Source: Macrolepiota albuminosa (taxonomy: Eukaryota > Basidiomycota > Agaricomycetes > Agaricales > Agaricaceae). Taken from it: DNA of 64,000 nt. The DNA lies in contig JAMWFC010000077.1 of the NCBI GenBank assembly GCA_027475525.1, positions 1,774,112 to 1,838,111 on the forward strand, read 5' to 3'. The notes under the pieces are model-generated. The model was not told the DNA's origin and made no database searches. It was given only the letters and a program-made list of their open reading frames with translations. Position numbers and translations under genes: made by a program. Positions within the stretch are counted from its first letter, which is position 1. Every line of letters begins with the position of its first letter. This document shows, piece after piece, positions 14,691 through 52,988 of the stretch.

Positions 14691-14763
14691 GTTGCAGGGC
14701 AACAGTGGGGGAAATCCCACCTCCCTGTTTCGGCTTATATGCCTCATCAGGCCCGTTTGCAAC
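14691..14763 (-). ncRNA. Hammerhead ribozyme (PLE-B copy)
   Basis: Base-for-base copy of 8999-9071 at an offset of 5692 bp, with the same CTGATGAG/CGAAAC core, the same stem I (GTTGCA…GGGC with GCCCTGCAAC) and the same predicted GUU cleavage site. It is conserved although the rest of this element is truncated. Confidence 0.88.
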
Positions 14764-15379: not shown

Positions 15380-15384
15380 GTCAC

Positions 15385-21560: not shown

Positions 21561-21617
21561 TTTCTAGCCATAAAATGCTAGGTCAATAAACTGTTTGCAC
21601 TTCTTTGCATATCTCCC

Positions 21618-21930
21618 AGCATATTCGAATATAATATGCATATCAATCAGCACTCACATTTGGAGTGCCACTTATCAATTTTTTTTTGCTAAAAAGCATA
21701 TTCGAATATAATATGCATATCAATCAGCACTCACATTTGGAGTGCCACTTATCAATTTTTTTTTGCTAAAATTGAGTAAGCATATTCGAATATAATATGC
21801 ATATCAATCAGCACTCACATTTGGAGTGCCACTTATCAATTTTTTTTTGCTAAAATTGAGTAAGCAAATCGGCACTCACATTTGGAGTGCCACTTAGCAA
21901 TTTATTTTTTTTTGCTAAAACTAAAATAAC
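21618..21930. repeat. Tandem cluster of GGCACTC hairpins next to the helicase gene
   Basis: Four copies of (A/G)GCACTC-ACATTTG-GAGTGCC lie at 21649, 21726, 21810 and 21871, each followed by ACTTA…T-tract…GCTAAA. The first doubling (21618-21694 equals 21695-21771) is exactly 77 bp and likely an assembly overlap; the next has an 84-bp period with 89 bp of identity and looks real. The innermost copy (21871-21891) ends about 220 bp beyond the helicase stop codon. Confidence 0.8.
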
Positions 21931-22111
21931 AAAAATTGCATTGACATAATCATAATATTTAGATTGAGCTTAGCTACTTAGTCAATATTTCTTTGCATAT
22001 ACATAGTGTTTGGAAAAATTGAAGGCAGGTTTTTTCTTTAATGCATATTTTATAAAGTTGATCTGTTAAAATGTAAAATATTAAATAGAATATAGTATAT
22101 AAAATATAAAA

Positions 22112-25100
22112 CTATAAACTGCTAGAGTCAATATCCATTGGCACTACATCTTTAAGCTGTTTATAAATTTGATAAAATGCAATAAGAAACTGTATATGTC
22201 GAGGAAGTTCTGTATGGTCTTTAGGTTCAACAATAATCCATTTAGTAAAAGCTGCTGGAGATCTCCAATGTTTTTCCCAATCGTCAATACCAATAGCTTG
22301 AGCAATAGGATTAAAGAAGGCAGCTCTCTCCTGCATTGGCTTTTGAGTCAAGATATGAGCAATAACAGTTGGCAAGAGTCTGGGAATAATAGAATGATAA
22401 GGGCATTGTGATGCATTAGCAAGTTGACCTTTAAGATGTTGAGGATGATTAAACTCTTCTCGAAATGGAATCCAACAAATATAGCAAATTGGCCAGACCG
22501 CAAAGGTTGTAAATTTCATCTGCTGCAGGCATTGCACCCAAATTGAGAAGAATCCATCGACTGCATGGTTATGAGGTTTTTGTTGAGGTTCTACAAGTCC
22601 ATGAACCCAGCAAAAAGCACATCCAATGCTGACTATCTGATCAATGATATGCTTCAAAATAGAAAGCCTATTTTCAGCTTCTGAAATTGCATCTTTCAAT
22701 AGTTTGCTGCTCATTTCTACATTGAATATTTGAGGCAATGTTAAAAAGATGCAATTAAAGTTTCAACAATTCTGACCTTGATTGTTTATAAATAAAGCAG
22801 TACAATTGGGTCCTTTCTTGTGAGAATTGTCAAATGAAGAAGATGATAGGCCAAGTAGAGGGCAATCTAAAGTTGCAACTTGATTTGAGGATAACTATTG
22901 CAAATTATTTTAGCATTGATTAATAAAAGTTTTAAACATATATAAAACTTACATTATTTTGCAAAATGCGACAGTTATCACAAAGTGGTGCATTTTTAAC
23001 TGAGAAGCATGAGTGGGCTACACCATCTAAAGCATATAGCTCTAGTAATTGACAATTTGGAGTTTTCATAAACCGCTTCATCTCAGCAACACCTGTGTGA
23101 TCGCCTGGAAGTGCATCCTTGTCCAAGTATGGAAGTCTGGAATAAAATAGCATGGAATGGCAGATGGATCCATCTCGGCCTCCTCGTCCTACTTCTTGAA
23201 TAAAATGCATTAAACTATGCACTTCATAGTGAATTATGTGCCAAACAGAAGGATAGTCGATGCCTTGACCAAAGCCCATAGTCGCTACTATCCATTGCTT
23301 GGAAAGATTGCCAGTAAGAGGTGTATGCCATTCATTTTGCCGCTGTTTTTTGATTTCTTTGTTTTTAGATTCGTCAGGATCCATCGTGCTGAAATAGAAT
23401 GGAAAGCCAAGCATATCTGCTATATGCTGAACTTGTTGAACTGTTCGGCAATAAATGAGACCTCTTTTATGAGGCTGGAGCTGAATAGAAAGAGCATAAT
23501 TTTGAAGCTCAGATTCCAGAAAATCAGTGTCGGCTATATGGCGAACAGTATATTCGATATTTCGTCTAGGATTGAGTGATCGGATTTCATGAACTAGATG
23601 CCGAGGAATATCCATCCAGTTGCATAATAAATCAACAGATCGAGGAAAGATAGTGGCTGAAAGAAATGTAATGGGTTTTTGAAGAGCTGTTAACACTTTA
23701 AGAAGGTGAAATGTTTTGCGATATGCAGAGGTGTAAATATGATGGGCCTCGTCCATGAAAATGCGCTTGATTCAATACTTTGCAGCATTAGCCCATTCTC
23801 AAAACCTGTCCTGGGTAGCTAGATGATATGGAACCAAAACAATTTGATTTTTGATTGCATCTGATTTTGGATAGATGCTCCCAGAAATGATTGTTTGATC
23901 AAGCCGCCGCTTCATATCTTCCACAAGAGATGTAAGAGGAATAATGACCAAGAACAGACTTTGAGGATGAAGAATAGCAGCTGAAAAGAACCCTAAAGCT
24001 TTTCCACTACCAGTTGGCAAGATAGCAAGAACATGTTTGGTGGTAAGATTTGACTGCACCAATTCTGCTTGCTCAGGACAAGTCCAAGAATAATTGTTAG
24101 AGTCATCTTGATGAGGCATAAGCAATCGGATTTTTGATAGAAGCTGAGGATGAACACATATAAGGTGCTGAGCATGATGAATTCCAGAAGGTGAAGGAGT
24201 AGCGCCAAGTGCATGAACAACTTCTTCAGCTATAGCAGGTGCCATAACTCCCAAATAGTGTTCTAGCTGCCCAACTATTTTATTGGTAGTCTCTTCAAAT
24301 CCTTGTTGCAGCTCAACTTTGACATTGTTGAGCATAGTATGAATACATGCATCAAGCTGCATGAATAGATCTTCCTGGGATTTAAAATCTTGATTCTATA
24401 TATAAATTTTTATAGTTTTTTTTAAATAAGAAACAAAATAAATATGCCCACCATGTTTGTATTTTTAATTTCTTTTACCAAAGAAGGATGCAACTGATTG
24501 ATGCATGCATGCCATCGGAAACAAACGCGCTGATCGGATGCAATTGAAGTATGTGAATTTCTTGGTAAAGCGTCATTGATTTGAAGAGCATAGTGTTGTT
24601 CGCCAGTTTTTACTGAGTGATTAAACAACTCGTGGATTATTTTGAGATCTTCATCTTCATCGTCAGGAATGTGAAAATCAATATGCCCAATATTGATTAT
24701 AATACTGCACATCACCTGCTGCCAATCCCTCATACCCATTGCTTGATTTAGCATATTCTTTGTGAATGAGGATAAAGCCTTTGAAAAATTATCTGTTTTC
24801 ATAATTTTGCCACTTTGCACAAAGACATGAGTGAGATAATTTTCGGCATCTTCTTTGGGCATTAGACACATAATGGCCATATAAGAAGCAGCTGGATAGA
24901 CAGTTGAAAGAAGAAGAAGAAGGAGCCGTGAAATTCGGAAGCTAGGAGAGTGGGCAACTTGACGAGTGACTCCATGGATATTTCTGGTCTTGGTGTATGT
25001 GGAAATAAAGGTGAGAGTATTGCTGAGCATAAAGAGATGCCGAGGACCATCTTTGTTATTCGCATATTTGAGGTCGTCACATTCTGATCCGCGAGCACCT

Positions 25101-27825
25101 CCACCCCATGTTGTAGAAGCAAGGCAAAACAATAAACCAACAATTTCATCAAGCAAGCTAAACCATTCCCAAAGTTCTGGTTTAAAAAATTAATATATAC
25201 TGCATCAATATTTAATTGCTTAGAAAAAGTACCTGCTCGAGCTTTTACTATTCCTTGAATATATTGAAAAAGTCTTGGATCTTTAGACAAGTGATGGAAT
25301 AGTCGAGGGGCAAAGGGTTTGAGATTATTTTCATGCATAGAAAAAATTGAAAATCGAATATCTTCATTTTGAGGATCATCTCGAAACCAATGTTCTGCAT
25401 TTGCAGTGCTAGGATCCAGTCTTGAATCAATATAATGAAGTATATCATAGAAGTGGCAGCCTCGAAAAAGTTGTGCAATAAGAGATTCCACTCGAATTAT
25501 TGCATTATCCAGGCCTAGATAGAATTTTTTCAAAACAATCGGAAAGCCATCAATGCTGAGAGCAGTTTTTTCTGAATTCCAATTAAATCGAGCAATTCCT
25601 GGCTGAGATTTTGCAATAACAGTGAGGTGAAGCATGCTTTGCCGAAGAGAATTGAACATATGCTGCTCTCCTTCATGTATCCATGGCTGAATTTCTTGCT
25701 TATATATTCTAATTAATTAAAATATAAGTGAAATGAATTTTCTTTTTAAGAAATAAACATACACTTGGCATGAAGTTTCTGTAAGTTCAGCAAGGCGGAT
25801 AATTTCCCAGCAAGCAGTAGCTCTAAAGCACCATTGAGCCCGCGATATATTATGAGGAAATTCTGGTGGAGAAGCAAGAGTGCCATAATCATCTTTAAGA
25901 TGATATGCAATCAGGAAGCGAGTGAATGGATCTTGAGTATCATTATAAAGAAACTTGTCACTTGGCCGAGATAAAAGAGCCCAGATGCACTGATGAATAT
26001 TCTTGATGAGTGAATCGGTACTGGTGCTTGAATTGGGAAGAGATTGTTCTAAAAATGTGAAAAGAACAAGTGTGTCGGGATGCAGAGGGATAGGAAATTT
26101 CATCATAGGTGCTTGAAGATGCCTTAGAATGAAAACCAGGAAATAAGCGACAAAAGCAGAATATTCTGAAAGTGTATTGCTTTCTTGAGGCTTCATGAAC
26201 GGTTTATGCTTGATTACAATTCTAAAAAAGCAGTTAGACCACAATAGATCTAAACAAGTTGAAAATTACTTGCTTTGGTTCTGGAGATCTAACAAGGCGC
26301 CGAGTCAAAATGTCGAGTTGATTAAGTTGCTCAGCAATATTAAAATAATATTCCTTAACAAGCTGGCAAAGTCGATGAAGATGTGGTTCAGATTCGGCCA
26401 TTGGAGGATGAGCAGTCGATCGCAGTTCAGCAAGATTGACATCTTTTAAAAGACCATCCCATTGCATATGATCAAGAAGTAATGTCCGAGCATGAGTATT
26501 GTTTGCTGGAACATATGTTGTAGAAAGAGTACCCAAGCCGATAGATTTCGCATAATCTTCTATAGCAGTAAGTGCATTGATACCTGCAGTTGGCCTATAT
26601 GAAATTTCTTGAATTTGTCTTTCTTGAAGATTTTTACTCAGAGGTTGGCAGGAAACCTCTGAGAAGCGGCGATCTTTCCCGACAAAGTCTGGATGAGCTT
26701 GTTTGCAATGTTTATAAAATGCGCGGGTGCTGGAATGAATGAGATGGCGATGAAGGCAGGAAGGAAGTTCGCATTTAATGCCTGTAATAATATCTATGCC
26801 ATCAAAAGGAGGAATAGGTGCTGTGCCAAGAGAAACAGGTTTATGGGCATCAAGCAGAATAAGCAACTGCTCCAGAACTTTTTGACTGGGAATTTGTCGA
26901 TTTTTTGAAAGTTGGAAGCGATGGCCTGCAGTATGTTCATAGGCATGGCGATGAGCTCGATCGAAGGGAATGAGAGATTGACATGCAAGGCAAATGATGC
27001 GATTGAAATTTGAGTCGACAGCAAGCTGATAACCACTGAGTTGATGCCGAGTTTTTTGAACTATATCATCTGAGGTAGTGAGGAAAGGGCGCTCTGGCAA
27101 AAACTCAGATTCATCATTATCCAAGTTTTTTTCAGAATCTTGATCCAAGTCATATTCATCATCGGACTCCAAATGAAGATTGGCAAGAAGAGGCTGAGGA
27201 GCAGTTGGATTATCCAAAGCAGGTTGAGTGTTTTTACTTGATGAAGCAGTGCATGGAGCAGAAACTGATGTTGGCAAGCAATGAGATGCAGATGATGGTA
27301 TATCATCTAGCATTGTACTATCTTGAACTAAATTTGAAAAAGAAATATTAATGTTAGTTAAATTTGCAAAAGTCATCTTACTGCTATTCTGAGCAATTAC
27401 TTCATCTAAAACTTGATGACTAAGTGCAGAAGAACTGGATTTGAAATCTGGATAATGAGAATCATCACTGGGTAAAGGATGAGGATTAAGGCGGCATAAA
27501 TGTGCAATATTAAGAGATGAAAATCGAGCATGCTTTTGAGCACCACAAGGACATGGCAATTGGCCAGCAAGATGAGAGCGCTTGATAGTAACTTGCTCTC
27601 CTACCATGAAAAAAAATCAATACTGATAGATACAAAGTTGAAATTGCTTACCATTGAATACAAGTGAATGCTCTAGACTATGGAATATATTGTTGTGTTT
27701 TTTTCTTTCTGCATTTGTATTGGGGTAATCTGGCTTTTGACAACCTTCAATTGGACATTTTTTGCTATCAAAACTTATATTTAATAAAGTGAAAAGCAAG
27801 CAAGATTTTTGAACCTTCTTGGCAT
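22112..27825 (-). pseudogene. Zinc finger - tyrosine-recombinase-like - RecQ helicase fusion (telomere-linked-helicase type), two in-frame TGA
   Basis: About 1760 codons in ten exons, joined in frame by nine short introns (for example 27651-27601, 26269-26209, 25762-25709, 25232-25177, 24451-24396). Order: C2H2-like fingers (CPIEGCQKPDYPN…H; CPCGAQKHARF); a middle domain with ARGSE, YTKTR and a C-terminal HSVKTGEQHY, where the H-to-Y spacing of nine equals that of tyrosine recombinases; then an SF2/RecQ helicase with PTGSGKA, DEAH, LSATI, GFGQGIDYP and QEVGRGGRDG; last a CAFCW…CYICW zinc-like tail. The Walker A Ser/Thr is Ala. Codons 23799-23801 and 23772-23774 are TGA within an otherwise open region just before DEAH; both fit TGG-to-TGA. 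The usual HxxR arginine seems replaced (DWQQ). The start ATG (27825) and first 43-bp intron are tentative. Confidence 0.75.
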
Positions 27826-28179
27826 GATTGCTATAAGCTGTGAATAAGTGCTATATCAAATAAAGAAATAAACTTGCTTTGAGATCAAAAACCAACTATT
27901 TGCTGAGGTTTTAGAGACAATAGTATAAGAAATCTTTCAATTAGATGGAAGAAGTTGAAAACAAATTTTTTGAGAATTATATAATTAAAAAAAAAGCTTT
28001 AAATTTTCAAAATATAGTAGTTGAACTTATTATTATTATTTAATTGCATTTACTTTGTATAATATGCCAAGAAGCCAAGATGCAAGTAAAGTTCTATTAT
28101 TATGAGTTTTGATAGAATTCTTCTTTATAGTACTTGAAATGTATCAAAAAGTTTTACTGTAGCAAAATTAACTATGCAG

Positions 28180-29696
28180 TTAGGAATCATTGAATTCTTC
28201 AATATCTGAATATAAAAATTGAATATCAGATTTAGCAATAAAAAAATTACTTACTTCTCAATTGAAGAGGACCATGAGGAAGCTGATTATCTTCTCGAAG
28301 GCGGAAATATGCATATACCAGCATTGAAAGATTTGAAACTTGAACATTCATTGGAAATGGACCGCGCTTTAACAACCATGTCTTGTATATAGCAAGATCT
28401 GTAAAATCAGAAGGAGAAAGCCCTAAAAAGTTGAAAACAAGATGGAAAAGTGCATCACATCGCCAGATAAGATATCCAAGTCCTCGCCAAAAATCTTGAT
28501 GCCAGTGATTTTTGCACGCTCGGCCTTGAGTTTCATCATGAGAATAGTTTTCGAACGGCTGAGGACACCAGCAAGAATAGCAAGCTTGGATTCCAGAGTC
28601 GGTGCGCAAGCCTCGGCGAAAAGCTTTATCGTAATGAGTATAAAAGGCTCCTCCACCTCGCAAAGGTATCGAACATTTGTATAGAAAATGATTCGAGCTT
28701 CCATCAGAAATCTGGAGAGTGGTATGTGCGACGCATAAATTCTCCATAAGCTCGACTCCAGTGCGAAGGTATTCTTTGAAATCTTCATACTTTGAATGTT
28801 TTGGTGCAAGTATAGCAAGAGATATAGGTCCAGGAACTACTGCAAAGTCATTGGAGTTGCAATTGCTTGCAAGCTGATTCACATCATGGTGTTTGGAAGC
28901 ATTAGAGTCAAAGCATTTGGTAACTGAGGTATTTAGCTGAGCTGATAAAGGAGTTGGCGATGATAAAGAGGAAGAGTGAGGCAGCTGCATTGATATAGGT
29001 GATGTCAAGGCCAGAGTCTTGTTGCCAGAATAATTGGATTGAAAGCGCAATTGAGAAGTCGAAGGATATTGAAATGGATCATTACTAAGTCGGAGTATTT
29101 TTGAAGAGCTCTGAGGAGTAGAATCAGATTCGGATAATTGTTTTCTTTTGCCTTTGATTGAAAAATTTGGCAAAGATCTAGCAGCAGGAGAAGTCATAGA
29201 ACCAGCAGGAGTACAAAGCTGCAAAGAATTTCGAGTTCGAACTGAAAGTTGATCCAAATATACTGGAAGATTTGCAGGTGGCAGTGGATCAAGAGGAATA
29301 TCATATTTCTTTAAAAGGTATTAGAATTAGTCAGAAAAAAAAAGTAAATAATCATACTTTTTGGTGGTCTGAGGAAATATGTAAATAAAGATCTCTTACT
29401 TCACCCACATTCAGGTAAAGGGCACCAAAATTTCAAATCTGCTTCATCCATATGGATGGTAAAAACTCGTCCTGTAAATAGATTAAGTAGGATTAAAGAC
29501 TTTAAGAAAAAAGTATTTATACCCAACATATTTAATGCAATTTCAGTTTTATCATTGTATAAAGGTATATGCAAAAGTAATCGCTTCTCGCTGTCAAAGA
29601 GTTGAGAACAAACAGGACATATGATGCTAAAAAAGAATCAAGCCAAGTAAAAAATGAAAGAAATGGTTCTTACTGAACAATAACAGGAGGGACCAT
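28180..29696 (-). CDS. C2H2 / CYSCW zinc-motif protein
   Basis: ATG at 29696 (MVPPVIV), a short intron, then a C2H2-like segment (CPVCSQLFDSEKRLLLHI), a second cysteine pair (WCPLPECG), a Ser/Pro-rich linker, and a C-terminal module CYSCWCP…H…C…H followed by DFWRGLGYLIWRC. The last intron has a perfect GTAAGT donor and leads to the short end …LRNIEEFNDS, stop at 28180-28182. The CYxCWxP…H…C..H module resembles the C-terminal tail of the helicase gene next door (CYICWIP), so the two are probably related by domain sharing. Same strand as its neighbours, about 350 bp upstream of the helicase start. No stop breaks the model. Function unknown; DNA or RNA binding is plausible. Confidence 0.6.
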
Positions 29697-29817
29697 GAGT
29701 GTAAAAACTAAAGAGTTGTTAATATGTGACAAGTAACTGTTATAATATGACATCATTGCTAAAACTTTTAATTATTTTGAGTATTATTAATGCAGCAATA
29801 CAATTTCATGCAATTTA

Positions 29818-31304
29818 CTATACTGAAAACTCTTCTACAAATGTTTCAATGTAGTCCCAAATAGTATCTAATTCCAGTGCTTCAAATAATTGTCTTAGCA
29901 AAATTAATGACCCAGTTCGAGACATTTGCAAATATTCATCAAGTGAACCATATGTTTCATCTTCATCAATTCTTGTTTCAAGCTGTCGGAACATTGTATT
30001 GAGCAAAGGGCCAAAAAGTGTAGATCGTCCTGTCTTCAAGTTGTTTGGAGTTGTCCATGTCATGTCAAGTAATATACCAACTCCAAACTACAAGATAAAA
30101 AAAATGAATAAAGCACAAGCAAAGCAATAGACTACCTTTTGATAAAGATGCAAAATATAATTGCGAGTTGTTGTTTTTCTCTGATATGCTTTTCCAAAGG
30201 CTTTTCGCATTTTCTTCCACTGTGATTCTTGTTTTTGTGCTGCAGTACAAAAGCGCATTTGCTGAATTTCATCCTTGCAAAGATATTCGAATGCATGGTC
30301 CAAATATTGAGTTCTTTCTTTTTGTGAGAGGCCATTCCAAGCAGTTTGAAATTTGAGGGTGTGAATTGTGCGAAGAACATAGCAAACAAAAGAGACCAAA
30401 TTTTCTCCATGTGGATTTTCATGAAGAAACTGCAAGCAATTAGTTAGAAGTTGTATATTTGAAGATATTAATTTTTACTTTTTCTCGCTTTAAAAGACAT
30501 TGATCCATATTGTTTTCATCATCAATAGTTTTAGACAACTCTATGACATCTGCCCATTCTCCTATATTTTCTATAGTATCTTGCAAGAGAGATTTCTAAT
30601 TTGATATTAAAATTAGCAATTTATATATATAAATAAAATATAAAAGCTTGCCAGAATTTCAACTGTTGTAGGAGAATATCCTAATAGCAATCGCAAGAGT
30701 GCATAATCTTCATTTTGAGCAAAACTGCGCTTTTTTGGTCGAATAATATTGCTAACGAGCTCTTCAACACTAAAGTGCCTATCAAATCTTTCTGGCCAAA
30801 TATTGAATAGTCTTTGAGTCAGACCCTGCAATTTGATTATCAGAAACTAGAAATATATACAAAAGAAAATACTTGCATCTGTATTTTCTTCACTATCATT
30901 TAATTCTTCTTCATCTCTATTTTCTTCATTCAAAATCAGTCTTGTATTGTGGGGGCTTTCGTTTTGAGGTGTAGAAACAGGAACAAAGTTCATATCCAGC
31001 AAACTATCTGCAAATATAAATCTAAGCAAGTAGTTGAATTTAAAACAATCTTAAATTTACCTTCAATATCTCTATTATCATCTGATTGATATTCTCCATC
31101 CAAAAACTCCTCAGATATAGTTGCCAAGAGAGCTACTTGTGATTCCATCTGCCCTATGAATTCACGAGCCAGTCTAAGAGTTTGTGCAAATTCCCGGCGA
31201 CTAGGAGGAGTAGTAGGTGTATTCAAAGGCTCCAAAGTACCAACAGCAGTAAGAGCACTTTGCAAAGAGTTAAGAACATCTTCATGCTCTGCATAAAGAG
31301 CCAT
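29818..31304 (-). CDS. Unknown multi-exon protein of the helicase/JmjC cluster
   Basis: ATG at 31304 (MALYAEHEDVLNSL), about six exons with GT-AG introns of 50-70 bp, stop at 29818-29820 (…FVEEFSV). An acidic middle (NEENRDEEELNDSEENTD) separates an N-terminal helical part (REFAQTLRLAREFIGQME) from a C-terminal region with aromatic and basic patches (LSQKERTQYLDHAFEYLC; QWKKMRKAFGKAYQRK). I do not recognise a family. It sits between the JmjC and zinc-motif genes on the same strand with small gaps, which suggests a co-inherited gene set. Exon edges were read by eye and could shift. Confidence 0.5.
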
Positions 31305-31487
31305 AAAAATGCAGGAAGCAGAAGAATATTTAGATGAGTAGTTAAATCTGACAAAGCAAATCTTTTGCATTTTAATCATTATTTTCAATAAAAATATTCA
31401 TCAATCTAAATTGAATTTCAAAAATTCATAATTGCCAATCACCTATTTATGTACAATGATACTCAACCAAAAAAAATGATATAATAT

Positions 31488-34400
31488 TCAAGTATCAACT
31501 TTGGCTTTTTTGGTATAAGTAGAAAAAGTAGTATCAGAGCTTGATGAATGATGCTTTCTTTTTCTAAAATCACTTGAAGTATCTGGCCATGCTGAATTTT
31601 CCTCATCAATATCATGTATGATTGTCTTGTGGCGAATATCAGCCCAGGTATGACCTTTGATATTTGCTGGAACTAAAAACTAATGTTAGACACTTAAAAA
31701 TAAATAATACAAATAACATGCCTGGAATATTGTTGGGAAGAAGTTTGAGGATATATTTTTTACCTCTCCATGACAATCTAGTCGATTTCTTGCTCTTGCA
31801 TTTGATATAATCATCAAATGCATGATGATTTCGCAGACATTCATCAAGAGCACCTTCAAACATTCCAGGAGTAATCAAGTCAATTTTACCAGAAAACTCT
31901 TTGTATGCTCGCAGCAAGTTAGCTGATTGGAATGTTTGCTCTCTGAGAGCAATTAACATTATAGCTTGCCGAGCGATAATTGGATCGTAAATAGCTTGCA
32001 GTGCTGAATTACCTATTAATATTATATTAATCATTAAATAATTAATACTATGATTTTAAAATTTACCTGTCAATGGCTTTGATTCACTTGCAGATGAATT
32101 GTCCTCCAAAAAGAACTCGTGATTATAAAAAATCCAAAAGACTAGGCACCGTGCTATTGCCCTCATGCGCTGAGTCCTGTCAAAGTCCTGAATGGTGCCA
32201 AGATTTCGGTTATACCCCCATAGTGAAAAGACATTTTGAAATTCGAAAAAAGCACATAGTGTTATGACATCTAAAAGCCCATCAAAAGTGTTGAGATCAG
32301 GGAGATGGTCTTTGATGAAAACTATACCAATAAAAGTTAAATTTTTTTTTTACCTGAGTTAAATATATATTTACCTGAGTTATGCTTTGTTCTATCAGTA
32401 AGATATTCAAAATAAAGTACCAAAAGTCGGCGAAAGATTTCTTGAGAAGCCACCAAATGATCGGCATTTGTGAGGCTAGAGGCCAAGAAGGTAAGATACC
32501 AGCCAAAGATACTTTGCTGAATTGTTGAGGTGGCATAGAAATGGCCACCAAGACATATCGTAGGCTCAGGAGTAATAACAGAATGTGGGGTATTTGGTTG
32601 CATTATCCTGCAAAATCAATCAATAACCAAGTTATTAAATAATAATAAAAAATATAAGCAGCTTACAATGTTGAACCAGGTTCAAGAACAACCAACTCCA
32701 AGTCATATTCTTCCATCTTAGCATTGAAATCCTTGTAGAATAAAAAAGGATCAGAAGTTGCCTGAGATTTAGGAGTAGCAATAATCCAGATTTTTTTCCC
32801 AGTAATAGTTTTGATAAAACTGCCAAAACCATTAGTGTCTACATGCCAGTCATGGACAGTATCGCCTGTGGAAGCCAATCCCCATCGCATGTCAAAGCAC
32901 GGATAGTTGTGCTCCTCTTTAAAATACTCTCTGCCAAGACAGGCAGACCATGCCAATTTATCAGAAGTAAATTTTTGATGAGGATAAGGATCTTCCCCAA
33001 GAGGATTGGCAAGAGCATTGATAGCTTTTGGATCTTGTTGAGAAACAGTCTCTAGCAAGCTAGAAAGAGTGGCAATCCTTTCATGAAAATTCGGCCCTCC
33101 AGATCTTTTTTTGTTACCAGAAGTCTTTTCTGACACGGATAAATCTGGATCAAATAGTAAGACAAAATAAACAAAAATATTGAGAATAAGTAGGCTAACC
33201 ATGTATGTGAATGTCCTTTTCCAAAGGCCCCAGCAAAAATAGTGCTTCTGCATCAAAAGAGTATTTTTTCTGAGGTTCTCCAGAAACCATGATATGTTGA
33301 TGTCGGAAATGATTCAAAACATCTTTGTGGGATAGTTGAATATACTCTTCATATGAAAAAATCTTGATTTTAGAAGAGTTGGGATCCATTAAATGACGAG
33401 GCCCATTATTGATGTAATTTTTTTCAACAGCTTCTAGAAGCTGTTGAATCAAATTTATCTGGGAAGAAAACTAGAAAAAAAAAATCTGAAATAGTTCATT
33501 CTGAACATATAAAGTCACATACATGAAGCCTAGGAGTATATTCTATTTTTTGATCAGAATTTGATCCAAAAAGAATATATGTTTTGGTTCCAGATTCCTA
33601 AAATATTTATTAGATATTTCTATCAGATAAATTATTGATAAAACCTTTTTGGCATTAAAAGATACCAATCTTGGTATTTGAGGTGCAACCTAATAATATG
33701 TAAATAAAAAAAATATTAGAATATAATATTCTTACAGGGCGATCCTTCAAAAGATCAAATACTTTGACTTCCTCATAGACATTTCTTTTAATCCATAAAA
33801 GATCAGTATCAGCAGCATCTTTTTTGGAAGATTTTGAAGGAGCTTTTGAAAGAAATTAGTAGTTTGCATTATTGAACTAAAAATATACTGACATTTGCTA
33901 TTTCTAACAAAATTATCCTGCCTGCTAGAACCAGAAGAAGCTTTTGATTTTGTAACAACTGCTTCTTCTTCTGAAGATAGCATATCTTCTGCAAATGCAA
34001 ATTATTATGATGAATATATAATTATTTGATATTCTTACCATCATCATTTTCCTCGACTTGATGAGGATGAGCAACTTTTTCTTCTTCTGAAAGTTGCATA
34101 TTATCTTGAGATAAAAGTTATTATAATAAATATATGATTATTTCATGTTCTTACCATCATCAGTTTCTACACCTTGATGCCTAGCTTCTTGCACAGGATT
34201 GACATCTTCCTGTATAGAGATGACTTTCTTTGCAACATGCCCAACTTCTTCTTCTTCTGAAAGTTGCATATCATCTTTAAATAAAAGTTACTATAAATGA
34301 ATATATAATGATTTGATATTCTTACCATCAGATTGTGCAACTTGCTGACCAGCTTCATCTTCACTACTGCCTTCTTCCTCTACAGGAGTGACTTCTCTAG

Positions 34401-36379: not shown

Positions 36380-36719
36380 GATGGTTTTGAACTGTGAGAG
36401 TGCAGTAAACAAAGGTAAAATTTTAGCCTAAGAAGTTGCCTGACTAAGCACTGACCGTGAGACTATTTTACTGCCAGATGCACTGCAACCCTGCAGCACC
36501 AAAAATTAGGCCTGAGAAGGAGTCAAACCTTCTGCAGCCTTGAAATTCACTATGCAAGTGTATATAAAATACAAAAAGTACAATATGAGCAAATGTAAAA
36601 TACATCAAGTCCATCCCCACCCTCCCCTCAATGACCTTGCCATCGGCTCGTCCCATCTAAGCAATGCTAAGGTAGCTGCGCTGCTGCCAGTTGCTGCACC
36701 AGATGCCCATCTGCAAGTC

Positions 36720-37440
36720 TGGCAACCTGATTCAGTGAGTACAGTTCACCTTGCACAGCGTCCACAGCACCCTCGGTGGCAATCCCACACTCTCACGAGG
36801 CAGCGCACATGCCCAAGACCATGCAGATGTGCTCGTCGAGGGATCCAAACTTGCAGTGAGCACGGTGCTCCCCACGCAGCGCCCACAGCACCCTCGACGG
36901 CAATCCCACGCTCGCACGAGGCAGCGCACATGCCCAAGACCGTGCAGACGTGCTCGTCGAGGAATCCAAACTTGTTATCTGGCAAAGTCTGGCGGCCTGA
37001 TTCAGTGAGCACGGCGCACCTTGCACAGCGTCCACAGCACCCTCGACGGCAATCCCACGCTCGCACGAGGCAGCGCACATGCCCAAGATCGTGCAGACAT
37101 GCTCGTCGAGGGATCCAAACTTGCAGTGAGCACGGTGCTCCCCACGCAGCGCCCACAGCACCCTCGACGGCAATCCCACGCTCGCACGAGGCAGCGCACA
37201 TGCCCAAGATCGTGCAGACATGCTCGTCGAGGGATCCAAACTTGCAGTGAGCACGGTGCTCCCCACGCAGCGCCCACAGCACCCTCGACGGCAATCCCAC
37301 GCTCGCACGAGGCAGCGCACATGCCCAAGACCGTGCAGACGTGCTCGTCGAGGAATCCAAACTTGCTAAATGGCAACTGGCACCAGAAGCCCATCCGTAA
37401 GTCTGGCGACCTGGTTCAGTGAGCGCGATGTCAGACGCAC
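36720..37440. repeat. 121-bp minisatellite
   Basis: The word GCACATGCCCAAGA recurs at about 36805, 36926, 37075, 37196 and 37317: period 121 bp, with one 28-bp insertion. The unit is GC-rich against an AT-rich background (CACAGCACCCTCGACGGCAA…GTGCTCGTCGAGG). Long open frames on both strands (up to 253 codons) are a by-product of the repeat and are not called as genes. Confidence 0.9.
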
Positions 37441-37854
37441 CGTGTGCAGCGTCCGCGATACCCACGGTCGCACGAGGAAGTGCGGGCGTGATGTTGGCAC
37501 ACATCACTAGTTATAGCGCAAGACCGTGCAGACGTGCTCATCGAGGGGTCGATAGAGACGTTGATAGACTCTGAGAAATGCCAATCAGCGGAGAAAATGT
37601 TACTGACTTTGAAAGAAATCATATACCCGGGGACAAGGTTTGTTCCCAATCGGGTACACGACCTTCACCGTTAGAGAGAGCGATCGCGATGAAGGCCGCA
37701 CCTTCCATGAAAATGAGGAACTGTGAGTGGCAAAGTAAATGTCTTGGCTGCGCAAAAAAAGAAGGTTACCTGAAAGAAGGCGTTTTGTTTTCGTGCTCAA
37801 GTTTGTGGGTCCAAAGAGCTCTAGACGGCGGTCGACCTCGGTGGTAGACCTTTG
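37441..37854. other. Spacer between the two minisatellites
   Basis: No domain is seen. The 89-codon plus frame (37578-37847) and the overlapping minus frame give no recognisable protein. Confidence 0.4.
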
Positions 37855-38490
37855 GCACCTGCTTACATCAGTGAGCGTGAGCATGTGACCGCGGCATGGA
37901 ATGCCGGGTGAGGTGGATATCCACCTGCTTACATCAGTGAGCGTGAGCGTGAGACCACGGCATGAGCTGCCGGGTGGATTGGATATCCACCTGCTGACAT
38001 CAGCCTCATGTGAGCGTGAGCGTGTGAGCGTGGCATGGCGTGCCGGGTGGATTGGATATCCACCTGCTGACATCAGCGAGCGTGAGCGTGAGCGTGTGAG
38101 CATGGCATGGCATGCCGGGTGGATTGGATATCCACCTGCTTACATCAGCCACATGTGAGCGTGTGAGCGCGGCATGGCGTGCCGGGTGGATTGGATATCC
38201 ACCTGCTGACATCAGCCCCATGTGAGCGTGTGAGCGCGGCATGAGCTGCCGGGTGGATTGGATATCCACCTGCTTACATCAGCCACATGTGAGCGTGTGA
38301 GCGCGGCATGAGCTGCCGGGTGAGGTGGATATCCACCTGCTTACATCAGCCAAGCGTGAGTGTGTGACCGCGGCATGAGCTGCCGGGTGAGGTGGATATC
38401 CACCTGCTTACATCACCCAAGCGTAAGCGTGCGACCCCGGCATGAGCTGCCGGGTGAGGTGGATATCCACCTGCTTACATCAGCCTCGCA
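37855..38490. repeat. 67-bp minisatellite with GGTGGATATCCACC palindrome
   Basis: GATATCCACCTGCT occurs at 37916, 37982, 38055, 38127, 38194, 38261, 38328, 38395 and 38462. The last six steps are 67 bp or, for one, 72 bp; early units vary from 66 to 73 bp because of GTGAGC additions. Each unit holds a palindrome around GATATC and a GCATGAGCTGCCGGGT segment. One solitary unit is found at 42440-42492. Confidence 0.9.
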
Positions 38491-41400
38491 CCTGATGCAT
38501 ATAGCAAGCTCAGGGCTAAGGCCAGAATCACACTCGCGTCAATCAGTAGACATACAGACATTCTGAACCGCACTTTTTGTACCAGAACGACAGGTAATAG
38601 ATCATACCGGCATAGAAACCTGCTTCTCCGATTCCCAGTAGTATTCTTTAAAGAGACCTGGGCAAAGTCAATCGCTACCCGCTGCAGAATAACTCACCTT
38701 AGAGCCAAAAGACCTCCATACCCCTTTGCATACACAAAGGAGAGGGATGCTACGCCCCATCCCGTTAGCGAAAGTTAGAAACTGCGTCATTTAGCAGATT
38801 TCCATGGTAGCGCATGATTATCTTACAATCTGCTGGCCCCGATATGCCTTTGCAAGACTGCGAATTGTGTCAGAAGACCTAAGGAGTAGAATTATCGTGA
38901 CTCGCTATTGGCAGGTATTTCAAAGAGACGTAACAATGTCACGGTAGAAGCATGAAACTTGAGTTTCTGCCAGTGCAAGCTCACAGTATCCGACGTAAAA
39001 GATGCTCAATGCGAGGGTCCACTTCGCATTAGTCGAAACTCTCTTCAATCGGTATATCGTTCAAAAGAGTAGGTAAAAGAGTGGAGCGAGCACGTACATA
39101 ATTATCATTGAAAGCCTCGACGACATGGACATTACCACTGCAGCAGTCAACCAACTATTGAGAGCAACTTAAAACTGAAGGGGCACACATGTTCGTCCGG
39201 TCTTTATTAGCTATCAGTATATACATTCCTAGATACGAGTTCCCAGTTGAGAAAAACCCACCGAATTGGTTAACTGTAGAAAATGTAAGGAACATTGTTA
39301 CTCAGGATACATATAAGTCATTGTGAGATCACTCACAAATGAAACTATGAAGTTATTGTTGGCAGAGGCTTTGTATAGGAAGTAAGTACTAGTAAGTCCT
39401 CACCTGCAGATTAGTCAATCTTACGCTTCACTCGTCTCTTTTGGGAGAAGAAAACGAGTCAGAAGGGAAAGGCCAGAACGAAGATTATGTACGTACCTCA
39501 TCTTCGTCACTGTATTCGGCGGTTTCTGCATCACGGTACACGGCTTCCGCACGCGTAAGGTCTGTCGATTTGACTCCTAGTTGCGCCTGAAAAAAGGTGC
39601 CTTCTGCTCCAACTTTATTCTGCTCAAGGTCAGCCGTGGAAACCATATGTGAGTCGATAGGAAGGACAAGACGTTCAATTATTGGAAGAGCAACTCATTT
39701 CGAACCGCCGTGAGCGCGTAAGCCTTCATCTGCCATTGGGAGGAAGTAGCGGCCCGAATGACTCTTCGACACCATCTGACCATTTCATCCATCCACTTGG
39801 CCCTTATGTACATGTCTTCCTCACGAAACTATCGATATCAGTGGCTCAATGGTTTCCGGTCTCTGTGCAAAATTCCAGCCTCAAGATGTTTCTTCAAGAT
39901 GGACAAGAATCGGGTCCAGAAGCTTGAACAAGAGGCATAGGGTTCGACCAATCCTTAGTGGGGAAGTAAAACTCTGGGAAAAAATGCTATTTTTGTGAAT
40001 GACCATCACACTACCGAAGGGACGAGTTTTTCATCCATTCGACCATCTTCAGAAGACCAGCAAGACTTCCTCAGTGGGTATTTTGTGATAGAAAGATCAC
40101 AAAAATCAAGGAGACCAGGATCAATAATGTGTGGATTTCAAATGAAATCCCAATACCCAACTCAAGCTTTTGGCAACTACGTATACATGAATCAGGATAC
40201 ATCGATTGAAATTTAGATATCTTTCGAGTCCACTTTTATCTCATCAAAGTTCGGTTATGTCCGGCGACGTATACAAGCAGTACTATAGAAAAGTCGTGTC
40301 AGGATTACGTGTTGATGCCTACAAGGGCGGAACCATCGGCAGCCCAAACGTCGTTGATTTCAATGTGGCACGCGTATTGGGTGCCACAGTTTCCGCACTA
40401 AAAGGTTTACATCATTAGCCCGGGCGCAAAGGACATGGGTCAAACGAGGTACGCTGCGATAAAGCTTTCCGAAATCTTCGACATAGAACTAGAAAGACAT
40501 TGGTTGCATCACGGCGTTGCAATGTCGAGATACTATTTTTACAGGAATGAGATTGACCGCTTTCCAGCTGGATAGACCTGATCGTCACTTACGGCTCAGC
40601 TAAAACAAGGGCAGCACCAAGAAAGACGAATGTGAACAGCTGAGCTCGGTACATTGCGTTATTTGCAAGCACCGGAAGAAAACGAGGTAGAACATACCTT
40701 CTCAATATAATAACCAGTACTAACATCAACGATGACGTGTCGGGATCTGACAGGTTCCAGGAATATACAGTGAGTTGGTCAGTGGAACGAGGATGGTTTT
40801 GTCTACCGGCGGTAACGTTCGACGAAATTTATAGTCACCGATCACGACCTTCCAGAATGAGCCAGGAACGTCCAGCATTCTATCCCGAATCTATGAGCCA
40901 TCAGCGTGCAGCGGTCAAGCAAGCGAGTCAGACCGAGTCAGGCAGAGGGATACATGGTTTGAACTGAGCTAACGCCGTTTCCAGGTACCCTGTGCGCCAT
41001 TATTGCGCAAAGCTGGCTTCCCACTTCTCGCCAACCTCCGAGAACGAGTGACGTGGCTTTCGTATGGCATAGTCTCGTCTGCTAAGTGATACCCACTAAG
41101 ATCATGTAGAGCGGCAAGAGCTCTCAGCTCCCTCTCAACAGTGCTTTGCCAATCTACAAAAGTGCTGAACACGTCGAACAAAAAAAGGTCAACGTCCCTG
41201 AGAATAGGTGCAGCTTCCAATGTCATAGTGTGAGTGTGAGTGGTGAGCGCATGGGGGCGTTGGAAGAAGCACTTGAATTGAAACAAATGAAGTGGTTCAT
41301 GCTTAAGTATATTATGGTGCCCAGCGTTACGGAGTGATATTCACAGAAACCTATTGTATTAACGTGCTCGCGGAAGAAATCCTGAATGTAGTGGGTGTGG

Positions 41401-42430
41401 CAAAACTAACGTCAAATCAATGAGATCAACAAATCGAGAGAAGGACCCAGAATCACCGAGGTGCCTATCACTAAGCTCCTACGAATCCTGAGTCTCTCCT
41501 ACAAATATACGATGCTGTGATTGGGGCTGCCGCAGCGCTACACTTCCAAGAATCCAGATCTCACGGCCAATCAACCTTAGGCGGTCACGATATCGATTGT
41601 TTTGGCTTTGACCCAGTGGAAACTGGTGTGGGGTCTTCCTGGGCCTCTCGCCAGCTGCAAGTGACCATTCTTCACCTGAGTCCGCTTTCAAATACACGTC
41701 CACAGTCGGAATGATTCCATTAGGCAACTGAGGCCGTTTTGATGCGCGCACAAACTTTTCAGCCCTGTTAGACGTACTTGGATTTTCTGAGGGAGTATTG
41801 TTCCCATGGGAGGACGGGAATTGTCCGAATCATACGCAACCAACTTGGAGTATTCCAGGACAAGGAAGGGGACTCAGCAAAGGACAGGTGCGCTCAAAAT
41901 GACGGATACATGTCTTTTGACCCACCAGCCAATCTCACACCGGTACTCATACTTAATCCAAACAAGTTTTCGACGAAGTAACGGGTGCGGTACCGAATAA
42001 CAGCATGCCGGCCACGAGGACTTACTGCTTCCAATCACGCCGCTGGAATATCCTCTCAAGACCACAAAGGTTGAGAATTCTACTTATGCGAAGATCAGTG
42101 AATCACTCCTGATACTGTATTTCTGTGGCATAAGAAAGGAGTGAAGGGGCTTCAGACAATCTCAGAGTCATTTGACCCCCGCTTTAAGTGCAAAGAATTG
42201 GAGCCTGCTTTACACTGCGATGTTTGCTTGTACATTTTAGGATGCCATCAGCTGCATGCCGAGCCCTTCTGGCGTGGAAACATCTGGACCAAAGCTTGAG
42301 AGCTTGAGCAACCTCTCAAGGCGAAGTAAACCAGCTTTTGCTAAACACTTATTAGGACTGAGGTGATTCACGCTGTTTCATACTGAGCCCCCTTTGCAGG
42401 AAGAAAAAGAAAGTGGTGGCAGTTTATGCA
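38491..42430. other. Unassigned host-like DNA between 67-bp repeat copies
   Basis: Base composition is like the 45-63 kb part. Apart from a haloacid-dehalogenase fragment (40969-41226), I see only short frames. A plus-strand stretch at about 40255-40570 reads SGDVYKQYYRKVVSGLRVDA…, and after one frameshift ISPGAKDMGQTRYAAIKLSE…, which looks like decayed coding sequence of unknown family. Around 39710-39940 another decayed reading (FICHWEEVAARMTLRHHL…) is visible without identification. Confidence 0.4.
40969..41226 (-). pseudogene. Haloacid-dehalogenase (type II) N-terminal fragment
   Basis: From ATG 41226 (MTLEAAPILRDVD) the minus frame reads LFLFDVFSTFVDWQSTVERE, which matches the motif I region of fungal HAD type II dehalogenases (usually FDVFGTxVDW, with the first Asp as nucleophile). 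The Gly of DxFGT is Ser here. Only the first ~60 residues look homologous. The cap and motifs II-IV are absent, and the frame ends in unrelated sequence, so this is a 5' fragment. Confidence 0.6.
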
Positions 42431-42439
42431 TAAGAATGC

Positions 42440-42492
42440 GGCTTGAGGTGCCGGGTGGATTGGATATCCACCTGCTTAAGTCAGCTACGTGT
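42440..42492. repeat. Solitary copy of the 67-bp minisatellite unit
   Basis: GAGGTGCCGGGTGGATTGGA followed by TATCCACCTGCTTAAGTCAG is the same unit as at 37.9-38.5 kb, 4 kb away. The AT-rich gene block resumes immediately after it. Confidence 0.85.
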
Positions 42493-42693
42493 GAGGGGGG
42501 GGACCATGGTCTGCAAATTGTCGAGTTAGAAAAACCAGACTTTGATATTTTTACTTTTTTCTCTTATTTAGCAGTACCATAGTTTGCACCAAAGCTCCAG
42601 CTTTGAAAAAAAATTAAACTTGTAGCATAATACAATATTTCAGAAATTGCATGTAAAATATTGCAAATCAAGATGGCATAATATTCATAGTTT

Positions 42694-44351
42694 CTATATA
42701 TCTTTATCAATTGCTAAATTATGCTCCTTTGCATATGATTTCCATGAACTAAGCAAATGAGGAGAAGTAACAAATGAAAGTCCTCGCTGAGCAAATTTTG
42801 GATTAATTTCTGAAGGATAAAAGTCTGGAAGGCTTGTTCCATGTGGTTGAAGTGGTTTCCATACAGTTAGAGTATTGGGGGCTGAGCGCATTCTAATTCC
42901 ATACTGGGCAAAATAAAAATGTCCTCCAGCATTGAAATCCATATTGCGTGCTACTGTCCAAGCAATAGCAAATTTATGAGGCTGATATTCATGGCGAATT
43001 GCTCTGAATCAATTTCAGCTTTTATACAAGTAGAAAATTATTATACAACTTACCTAGAGTAGTTGACACCCATTACACCTGCAGGAGGTGCTAGGTCCAT
43101 GTTTTTAAAGGTGAATTTGAAATCACCTGCTTGCACACTGCATTTTCCTCTAGTTAGACCAGGAAGATGCTGAATAGTATCCAGAGGCCGCGAGGAAGTC
43201 TGAGTAGGCTTGATGTAATTATTTTCAGCTTCTTTTTGCCTAAGTGCCTGGTCATAGATTGAAGAGTTAGAGGAAGGTGCTTCTTCTTGCTTAGAAAGCA
43301 AAGCAGCATCACAAGTCATCTGCTTGTTTCCATCCATTCCTTTTAGTTTTGCAGCTGCTAGAAAGGTGGTAAAATCTTCAATGACTTCTTTTGGCAGCCT
43401 AGATTTTGCCATATTCCATAAAATTGCAAACAATGAGCTTGCTTCCACATCTACTTTTGCTCCTTCTTCCCTAGCTTCTTGTTTCTGGGATAACAAGTTT
43501 CTAACCCAATGAAACTCGGTCTTGCTTCTAGAGCCAGCTGAATATCCCATTTGAATGAGCTTTCCTGGATCTTCTTTCTATATTGCAACAATTAGCCAAT
43601 TTAGTTTTCAAGGTAAATCAACTTACTCTTATATTTACTCTTTGCTCTACTGCCCTCTGCACTACTGAATCTGCCCATTCTACCAAATCTGCTGAAAGAC
43701 ATATGTTTCGCAAAACAATGCCAATCAAATGACCATTTTCATCTTTGAAGATGCAGCTCATATCTTCAGCTACATCAAAATATAGCTTTGAGCCGTCAAG
43801 AACATGGACAGGAAGCCGCTTTTTCCTTTTGTCTGCCTGATAACCATTATCGAAGTGATCTCGCCATTTAGCTGCAATGCTTTCTGATTCTGCAATGCAG
43901 TGTCCATAAGGAGGATAACATTCTTCTAGTTTTTGCACTTGTATCACAGGAAGTGCTCTGATAAAAGCTTCTCTTTGTTCTTCTTTCCAGTTGATACCTG
44001 TTTCTTTGATAAAAGATTTTTTTGCTTGTCTAAATTTTTTAATAGTTAGTGAATATTTGGTAAAATCCTTTTTGCTTGCCTAAATTGTTCAATATATTCT
44101 TTTCTGCATGCAAGTGCCTCCAAAATTCTTTTATCAACATTGACTTGGTTTCCACACCATTCAGCAAAAGTTTTCAGACTTTTGATTGCCTCCAACTCCA
44201 TGATTATCCCTCGCTGTGCTGCTAGCTCATGCAGCTGATTTGAAAAATTATCTCCATCATTGGTGGCAAGATAGGAGAGAGCAGTCCAGTTTTCTGCCGC
44301 TGATTGTAAGATGACTGATATGTTATCAGAAGTTAGCGCGTAAAAAGCCAT
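42694..44351 (-). CDS. Double-stranded beta-helix (2OG-oxygenase-like) protein, possibly TET/JBP-related
   Basis: ATG at 44351 (MAFYALTSDNISV). Four exons are joined in frame by three introns: a GC-AG intron 44079-44030, a GTAAGT…ATATAG intron just after …EQRVNIR (about 43.6 kb), and a GTAAGT…TTCAG intron after GVNYS (about 43.05-43.0 kb). Stop after …AIDKDI. The N-terminal half is unrecognised. The C-terminal part (HKFAIAWTVARN…GGHFYFAQYGIRM…NTLTVWKPLQPHGTSL) looks like the beta-helix of fungal 2OG-Fe(II) oxygenases of the TET/JBP-like group, including the distal His and a candidate 2OG-binding region. I cannot see a clear H-x-D pair, so it may be inactive or misassigned. No stop interrupts it. 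Fungal TET/JBP genes often travel with transposons. Confidence 0.55.
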
Positions 44352-44494
44352 AAGTGGTGTGTAGAACAAGGCTAGAAAGCTGCTGCAAAGACTTTTAAAA
44401 AAGCAAAGCTTATTTTTGAAAAAAAAGTATTAGCTGCTTAGTCAATTTTCTCACTTTCATTTTACTTTTGATAAAGTTTTAATTTAATTGCAAG

Positions 44495-44892
44495 CATGGG
44501 TCTGAACCATGAGAATCAAGTAATGTGCCATTTATCTGATTCTGATCTCTTAGAAGCTGACCTCCAAAAATATGCCCAATCTATTGAACTTGCCCCTTAT
44601 AAGTAAGGCTTTATTTATTGCTGAACTATTCAGCAAATAAAGTGCAATGCTCAAGTCCTGAGTTTCCTATTCTATTATAGCTTTATGCATCTAGATGGCA
44701 GAGAAAACATCACCAGCAACTGTGTGCATTAGATCTATTTGTTATTCTATTTTTTTTTATTCAAAGCTTCCATTTTATAACAAGAATACACTTCCAGGTA
44801 ATCATTCTAGTATTGCTAAAGTGATCTGCTTTTTAAAGACTCCTGATTGCCAAATAATTGAACTCTACTATATTAGTAGCTTTGCACACTGA
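44495..44892 (+). pseudogene. Deleted second copy of the RecQ-type helicase gene, opposite strand
   Basis: The plus strand reads CHLSDSDLLEADLQKYAQSI-ELAPYK, matching RHIADTDFLESELQNYALSI-QLQPHK of the 22-28 kb gene. After a deletion of the motif IV-VI region it continues CYSIFFYSKLPFYNKNTLPG…FLKTPDCQIIELY, matching CHSMLFYSRLPYLDKDALPG…FMKTPNCQLLELY. Identity is partial, so this is a diverged paralogue, not a recent copy. It is oriented toward the right-hand hairpin, as the main gene is oriented toward the left-hand hairpins. Confidence 0.75.
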
Positions 44893-45158
44893 TTTGTTAT
44901 ATTTGTTAGATTCTATTTCATGAAAACTTGGTCATTCTTCTTATGCCCATATTCTAATCCAGAAACTAATGCCTGAAAAAGATAACTAGAAATAACTGAA
45001 AGAGCTAACTTTTTAGTGCCTATTGCACATACTATAGGAATAAAAAGATGTGAGAATAATTGGAAGTCACTAGCATCTTTTATTAAATAAATCAGCAGTG
45101 AATCAAAAGATCAGGTAATAAAACAAATTCAATATCTGAGAGCATCTCAAGACTGGCT

Positions 45159-45179
45159 GGCACTCACAATGTGAGTGCC
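45159..45179. repeat. Right terminal palindrome, inverted relative to the left copies
   Basis: Arms GGCACTCACA and TGTGAGTGCC around a single A. Its reverse complement with one flanking base on each side (CGGCACTCACATT-GT-GAGTGCCA) matches the innermost left copy (21870-21892, CGGCACTCACATT-TG-GAGTGCCA) at 21 of 23 positions. It therefore forms an inverted pair with the left hairpins across 23.3 kb. Confidence 0.85.
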
Positions 45180-45656
45180 GCACTAACTTTTTTCTCTATT
45201 GCCATCTTGCAAGCTACATTCTAGCCTAGCTAAATCATCTGGCTCGCAAGTGAAGTAATGGTTAGATTTACTTGTTGCCTTAGCTATAACTTCCTTCTTT
45301 TTGTAATGAAGGCTATAATTCTCCAACCTTTGGTACCAGAGATTTAACATCTCAGTTTGTAGTCTCCTCCAGATCCTCATTTGGCATTTGGATGACTTCA
45401 TTCCTTAAATCAAAAGAAAAGAAGCCTGTTATGGAGGATCAAATACAGATCTATGTCTTTACTGTAGTCTTTGAAACTGTGTGCATAGGTAGCCAGGAGA
45501 TAGACTAAATGCAAGCACAAAAAGAATGTACTCTAAATATGGCGCGCTATGTTTAGTGAGTGTTCCCACACTAAACCTCTCCCTCCAGGTCAAACTTGGC
45601 TTTGATCCTTCTAACAATGTGCGCACATTATTGACACTTATCGTTCCCAGTCCGAT
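45180..45656. other. Transition from AT-rich block to host-like DNA
   Basis: Composition changes near 45540. A 72-codon minus frame (45183-45401) gives no recognisable protein. Confidence 0.4.
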
Positions 45657-51076: not shown

Positions 51077-51109
51077 TTGCCACTTTCCTTGACATTGTTC
51101 TTCGAATAT

Positions 51110-52279: not shown

Positions 52280-52343
52280 CTTCAATTTCGTTGGATATGA
52301 AATATTACAATTTGCTCCCGAATCAGTTCAATTGCAAGTATGA

Positions 52344-52988
<645 letters not shown>

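What the first reader, a model, noticed from the sequence alone, without database searches (positions are those of the whole stretch)
21870..45180. Candidate ~23-kb mobile element bounded by inverted palindromes, carrying a recombinase-helicase fusion and chromatin-type enzymes
A 23-bp motif (CGGCACTCACATT…GAGTGCCA, itself a hairpin) occurs at 21870-21892 and, inverted with 21 of 23 positions matching, at 45158-45180. Between them lie five minus-strand genes: the zinc finger/recombinase-like/RecQ fusion, a CYxCW zinc protein, an unknown protein, a JmjC protein and a beta-helix dioxygenase-like protein. A diverged helicase copy faces the opposite end. Base composition differs sharply from 45.6-63 kb. 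I know of no described fungal element with this gene set; KDZ transposons, Cryptons and Starships share single parts only. The inside also holds minisatellites and host-like DNA, so it may be a composite or an old, rearranged element.
Basis: partly seen in the sequence, partly recalled or inferred. Interest (0 to 1): 0.88.

Follow-up and report, generated by a model that had tools for sequence, protein, structure and literature searches.

The report
Subtelomere-type recombinase-helicase gene block
The stretch is a decayed block of mushroom genes of the kind found near chromosome ends, not a transposon marked off by its two palindromes, but its main gene appears to join a cut-and-rejoin recombinase to a DNA-unwinding helicase, a combination I found no description of.

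Summary
The motifs and genes are real; the element boundaries are not. The palindrome's 21-bp core occurs six times in the window and is dispersed in the genome (25 exact 22-mer places). Homology to other copies runs outward past both proposed ends: 1.5 kb at 21870 (C86 copy), 112 bp at 45158 (C6 copy). The right palindrome is the 3' flank of a second, inverted RecQ remnant.

What it is: one of about ten loci of a RecQ family resembling fungal telomere-linked helicases; 8 of 10 have a CYxCW gene within 20 kb. C6 carries a collinear, partly broken copy of the five genes.

The parts
22112..27850 (-). RecQ fusion gene, broken copy: zinc fingers/OrsD-like, tyrosine-recombinase-like domain, RecQ helicase, C-rich tail
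   Evidence: ORFs; Pfam DEAD 1.6e-8, Helicase_C 1.9e-7, OrsD 5.9e-6; exon/intron candidates; in-frame stops between helicase exons where the C68 copy is open
24452..25177 (-). exon with the tyrosine-recombinase-like catalytic core
   Evidence: AF2 mean pLDDT 73, pTM 0.70; VIA-align: 34 of the top 35 rows are YR or topo IB; first R, K, H and Y present, second R replaced in this copy
28247..29637 (-). CYxCW zinc-type protein, regular neighbour of the RecQ fusion
   Evidence: 8 of 11 CYxCW loci lie within 20 kb of a RecQ fusion; three homologs found, in Termitomyces and Lyophyllum
29818..31397 (-). unknown protein, relatives also next to CYxCW on C6 and C68
   Evidence: tblastn
31639..33470 (-). 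JmjC-type protein, keeps HxD and a distal H by eye; possible N-terminal part up to about 35.9 kb
   Evidence: Pfam JmjC E 7.9e-4, below the curated cut-off; 150 matches scored in the genome
42694..44429 (-). dioxygenase-like (TET/JBP-like by motif only) gene
   Evidence: no Pfam or PDB sequence match to a dioxygenase; 86% identical copy on C6
44526..45144 (+). remnant of the 3' end of a second RecQ-family gene
   Evidence: about 81% DNA identity to the C68 RecQ 3' end; tblastn 45-50% to the window RecQ
21870..21892 (.). palindrome 3' of the RecQ gene (proposed left end)
   Evidence: homology with the C86 copy spans it
45158..45180 (.). palindrome 3' of the RecQ remnant (proposed right end)
   Evidence: homology with the C6 copy spans it; a C94 locus shares the outer flank, set off by about 150 bp from its own palindrome
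21618..21866 (.). 77/84-bp tandem array holding three more palindromes
17123..17143 (.). palindrome at the end of a 352-bp repeat module (flank class A)

Best explanation
The interval is a decayed subtelomere-type gene block in a Lyophyllaceae-like mushroom genome, built around a RecQ helicase family comparable to fungal telomere-linked helicases. Its key protein carries N-terminal zinc fingers, a tyrosine-recombinase-like domain and a RecQ helicase. Shown by computation: domain make-up, predicted recombinase fold, conserved catalytic-type residues, multi-copy linkage with CYxCW, and a broken window copy. Inferred: intact copies bind DNA near chromosome ends, nick and rejoin it through the recombinase tyrosine and unwind it with RecQ. 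Blocks then spread between chromosome ends by recombination, either helped by this enzyme or simply by subtelomeric duplication. The palindromes are dispersed sites inside such modules, not the termini of this unit.
For: RecQ family: 18 matches, which I count as ten main loci (two remnants and three matches at 27% identity left out). 8 of these 10 and 8 of 11 CYxCW loci lie within 20 kb of each other (one of the 11, at the edge of C52, scores the same as the C124 one and may be a duplicate). Lyophyllum atratum P0006 and P0030 share the printed contig length and have near-adjacent tags. 14 of 17 exact palindromes on contigs >=600 kb lie <100 kb from a contig end, 3.2 expected. Recombinase fold. 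Residues in the 27 sequences of A5: first R 27 of 27, K 27 of 27, second R 25 of 26 with a letter (the exception is the window), H 27 of 27, Y 27 of 27; P0025 and P0027, which lack part of the domain, were not put in A5. Collinear C6 copy. Homology past both palindromes.
Against: Contig ends are not proven telomeres: no exact (TTAGGG)4 was found (the tool warns that simple repeats may be skipped). Foldseek alone gave no significant match, and its best row was unrelated; the fold claim rests on VIA-align, which re-aligns Foldseek's own candidates, and on motifs. The conserved H and Y lie in a stretch with pLDDT under 50 in the window-exon model, so their placement in the active site is not shown. 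The His of the usual HxxR box is not conserved (R/Q/S/A/P). No activity is shown. No empty site, target duplication or second strain could be examined.
Confidence: 0.72

Rival explanations
1. A true 23-kb transposon with the palindromes as terminal inverted repeats, moved by the recombinase-helicase.
For: Both palindromes exist in inverted order; a collinear five-gene copy exists on C6 and keeps the right palindrome.
Against: Homology continues outward past both palindromes. The C6 copy shows no palindrome in the 3.2 kb fetched beyond its RecQ match. The right palindrome belongs to a different, inverted RecQ remnant. The palindrome also lies in several unrelated repeat families.
Confidence: 0.05
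2. The palindromes are recombination core sites (two 7-bp arms around a 7-bp spacer) of the recombinase-RecQ protein, which shuffles subtelomeric modules at them.
For: Arm-spacer-arm shape; by subtraction, a palindrome 0.96-1.11 kb past the helicase match in 5 of 10 RecQ loci (a sixth at 1.9 kb) and 0.27 kb past both remnants; the same hairpin in at least four clearly unrelated flank families, six by the clustering; one class joins one left flank to about six different right-hand sequences, grouped by eye.
Against: Dispersed repeats can look the same. Only 5 of 30 palindrome loci have RecQ within 1.5 kb. C6 has none within 3.2 kb fetched, and C86 217.9 kb, C121 and C124 show none with <=1 mismatch within 2 kb. 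For the classes seen in the window, homology does not break at the palindrome. Binding was not tested.
Confidence: 0.15
3. Plain subtelomeric segmental duplication: RecQ and its neighbours are passive passengers, and the recombinase domain is a relic or serves another role.
For: Near-contig-end bias; long homology shared with C86 and C6 copies including flanking DNA; broken copies.
Against: The catalytic-type residues stay conserved across genera at 28-69% overall identity, so the domain has been under selection.
Confidence: 0.3

Closest known systems
Subtelomeric (telomere-linked) RecQ helicases of fungi, e.g. Agaricus bisporus var. burnettii (PMC7473861: passages and part 1 of 2 of the discussion read)
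   Same: RecQ core, several copies of differing completeness, near chromosome or contig ends; that paper also reports Penelope-like elements at chromosome ends
   Different: That paper found no domain beyond the helicase core; here a recombinase-like domain and zinc fingers precede it. I could not test whether the A. bisporus genes share this.
Crypton transposons (recalled)
   Same: a tyrosine recombinase as the recombination enzyme
   Different: fused to RecQ, about 1,500-1,800 residues in most full-length homologs, no insertion site or target repeat shown
Academ transposons (RecQ helicase mentioned in PMC3627910, passage read)
   Same: RecQ-type helicase in a mobile-element setting
   Different: Academ uses a DDE transposase (recalled); here the predicted fold is recombinase-like
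KDZ and other TET/JBP-carrying fungal transposons (PMC12730594: abstract, outline, section 3.2 and term search)
   Same: mushroom genomes with dioxygenase genes beside mobile elements
   Different: RecQ, JmjC, Crypton and tyrosine recombinase have no hit in that main text; no KDZ transposase matched in the pieces scanned here
Starships (recalled)
   Same: large fungal elements with a tyrosine recombinase
   Different: no DUF3435 captain match; recombinase-like domain fused to a helicase

Membership tests
Telomere-linked RecQ helicase | RecQ-type helicase core | tested here: met
   Pfam DEAD and Helicase_C; profile of 27 homologs matches RecQ-family structures best, E 7.6e-46
Telomere-linked RecQ helicase | copies next to telomeres | tested here: inconclusive
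   window ends at a contig end; contig-end bias measured for palindromes, not RecQ; no (TTAGGG)4 found
Telomere-linked RecQ helicase | multi-copy family with truncated members | tested here: met
Tyrosine recombinase | catalytic-domain fold | tested here: met
Tyrosine recombinase | R-K-HxxR-H/W-Y residues | tested here: inconclusive
   R, K, second R, H, Y conserved; H of HxxR not; H and Y in a low-confidence stretch
Crypton | short direct repeats at insertion junctions | not tested
   no boundary established
Starship | DUF3435 captain | tested here: not met
   no such Pfam match for the fusion's pieces at E<=0.1 or for homologs P0026 and P0004 at E<=1
KDZ transposon | KDZ transposase | tested here: inconclusive
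   no such Pfam match in the 20 window ORFs scanned, 16 of them inside the interval; other ORFs not scanned
Helitron | Rep/PIF1 protein | tested here: not met
   the C90 RepHel protein has no tblastn match in the window at E<=0.01
TIR transposon bounded by the palindromes | homology between copies stops at the termini | tested here: not met
TET/JBP dioxygenase | family profile and HxD | tested here: inconclusive
   no Pfam or PDB match; no HxD seen by eye

The most novel reading that the evidence does not exclude
A eukaryotic site-specific recombination system of chromosome ends: a zinc-finger, tyrosine-recombinase, RecQ fusion acts at a palindromic core site (7-bp arms, 7-bp spacer) that is shared by otherwise unrelated subtelomeric modules, and so reshuffles the modules between chromosome ends.
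Probability: 0.14. Interest if true: 0.88.

Novelty: new variant of a known kind. Interest (0 to 1): 0.56.

Why it matters
Why many fungi keep a fast-changing RecQ gene family at chromosome ends is unsettled. A recombinase domain in the same protein would offer a direct, testable answer: the family may be selfish, or may drive subtelomere exchange, by cutting and rejoining DNA itself. It would also join two enzyme types whose fusion I did not find described in the searches listed.

Tried and rejected
Rejected: the palindromes as element ends. Rejected: the palindrome as a Helitron 3' hairpin, since the following bases vary and homology continues past it. Tried without result: CYxCW as a copy of the RecQ tail (hhalign probability 5); the dioxygenase-like gene against Pfam and PDB; Rfam on 20-46 kb at gathering threshold (none); telomere repeats in the assembly (none). 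The profile search for distant RecQ relatives did not reach further fungal lineages that I can name (8 rows; only the 7993 candidates sharing most words were scored). Literature: searches gave no paper that I could see on a tyrosine-recombinase/RecQ fusion; most hits were seen in the listing only, and the library lacks most subscription journals. The one paper holding 'RecQ', 'subtelomeric' and 'tyrosine recombinase' together is on Trypanosoma cruzi, listing only. PMC10799480 (passages) mentions these terms only in its references. PMC4289320 (passages), on mushroom Helitron cargo, has no hit for JmjC, jumonji or histone. Structure absences: DDE folds were not listed, which does not exclude them.

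Full report
Setting. The window is G000:C62:1774112-1838111 and ends at the end of its contig (contig length); the genome has 100.1 Mb in 129 contigs and is unnamed. The closest protein relatives are from Termitomyces and Lyophyllum, so a Lyophyllaceae-like mushroom is inferred.

The observation. The two motifs are where stated and match 21 of 23 positions in inverted order (counted by hand). Each is a hairpin, so either orientation fits fairly well (18 of 23 direct). Four more copies of the core lie at 17123, 21649, 21726 and 21810. In the genome the exact 22-mer pattern has 25 places. The 21-mer at <=2 mismatches gives 74 forward and 73 reverse counts, many being one site read on both strands, with none for the reversed control.

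The palindromes are not the ends. Left: the C86 copy (L026) aligns from window 20659 to 22382 at 86%, straight across the motif, and again at 20404-20669 at 92%, where the fetched locus begins. Right: the C6 copy aligns across the motif, from 45157 to 45292, at 80%. A C94 locus matches the outer flank 45180-45281 at 86%, but there about 150 bp of other sequence lie between flank and palindrome. The right motif sits 3' of a RecQ remnant on the plus strand (44526-45144) that is about 81% identical to the C68 RecQ 3' end. Both motifs are thus 3' flanks of two RecQ-family genes facing outward. Among 40 distinct palindromes with 60-bp flanks, found with strict arms in the loci then at hand, the clustering gives six recurrent flank families. 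Two of these, both from the window region, resemble each other and class A next to the motif, so I count four as clearly unrelated. RecQ-family sequence lies within 1.5 kb in 5 of the 30 loci L009-L038. One flank class, absent from the window, joins a constant left side to about six different right sides (grouped by eye) at the palindrome or its half, in 17 loci. That is a genuine junction and the basis of the novel case.

The block. RecQ matches number 18. I count ten main loci, leaving out two remnants (C62 at 1818.6-1819.0 kb, C122) and three matches at 27% identity (C121 at 71 kb, C65, C105). CYxCW has 19 matches, which I count as eleven loci. Eight pairs lie within 20 kb, in varied order and strand. 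In Lyophyllum atratum the homologs P0006 and P0030 have tags ...1683436 and ...1683438 and the same printed contig length of 53,721 bases, which implies but does not prove one contig. JmjC has 150 matches scored of 157 candidates, some being two pieces of one gene; the dioxygenase-like gene has 13. Among the places found, these two lie beside a RecQ locus only in the window and on C6. C6 holds pieces of all five genes in the same order and strand, the larger blocks 91-93% identical in DNA and the protein pieces mostly 78-86%, enlarged by insertions; its RecQ, JmjC and CYxCW matches carry stops. I found no palindrome in the 3.2 kb fetched beyond its RecQ match.

State of the window copy. The C68 relative is open through the helicase exons where the window has in-frame stops, and the window lacks the second conserved Arg. 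It is very likely a pseudogene; less damaged copies exist.

Position. Of 34 exact 21-mer places, 30 lie on contigs of known length, and 17 of those on contigs of at least 600 kb. 14 of these 17 are within 100 kb of a contig end, against 3.2 expected, with no simulation of 200,000 reaching 14. Places on one contig are not independent. No exact (TTAGGG)4 was found in the assembly, so 'subtelomeric' is inferred.

JmjC. The window protein keeps HxD and a distal His by eye but scores under the Pfam cut-off (E 7.9e-4). A relative on C90 lies about 0.4 kb from a 2,568-residue Helitron Rep/PIF1 ORF, convergent with it. The stretch with the end of that ORF and the JmjC gene recurs at 97-100% identity on C45 and C106, and on C78 in part (3 of 426 candidates scored). 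That Helitron protein has no match in the window. A Helitron origin for the window's JmjC gene is possible, not shown.

Literature. The A. bisporus telomere-to-telomere paper (PMC7473861, passages and part 1 of the discussion) reports subtelomeric RecQ genes with no other domain recognised. PMC4522978 (passages) reports low-GC subtelomeric RecQ in an ascomycete. PMC12730594 (abstract, outline, section 3.2, term search) treats TET/JBP in transposons; its main text has no hit for RecQ or JmjC. I found no description of the fusion in the searches listed under Tried and rejected.

Verdict. The mobile-element boundaries are not supported. The gene block is a decayed member of a known kind of subtelomere-type RecQ region. 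The recombinase-helicase fusion is, on this evidence, an undescribed variant.

Noticed in passing
L063, L045 and L064 (C90:1495001-1525000): A JmjC gene lies convergent with and about 0.4 kb from a 2,568-residue Helitron Rep/PIF1 ORF; the stretch with the ORF's end and JmjC recurs at 97-100% identity on C45, C106 and partly C78. JmjC matches number 150 in this genome. This may be a JmjC-carrying Helitron family.
   Followed up: partly
window 8892-15292: A 1211-residue ORF with a YIDD box (reverse-transcriptase-like by eye, resembling Penelope-type elements from memory) lies between two identical 153-residue ORFs (9139 and 14831) and near (TTAGGG)2 units at 8909, 8925 and 13685. No Pfam or PDB match.
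   Followed up: partly
L046-L062, 17 loci: A 24-bp sequence, often doubled into a 51-bp palindrome, precedes ...AAGCTCTCTGGCACT and then about six unrelated sequences: a modular junction.
   Followed up: partly
window 277-1281 and 15383-16574: Arrays of a ~352-bp tandem repeat shared with many palindrome loci elsewhere.
   Followed up: no
window 19839-20222: ORF with a weak integrase H2C2 match (E 0.0053, under the cut-off), possible retrotransposon remnant just outside the DNA seen to be shared with the C86 copy.
   Followed up: partly
window 51056-52988: Diverged relatives of the 51.1-52.3 kb ORFs also lie near the clusters on C6, C68 and C118; next to an ORF with a Helicase_C match at 52485-52985.
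   Followed up: no
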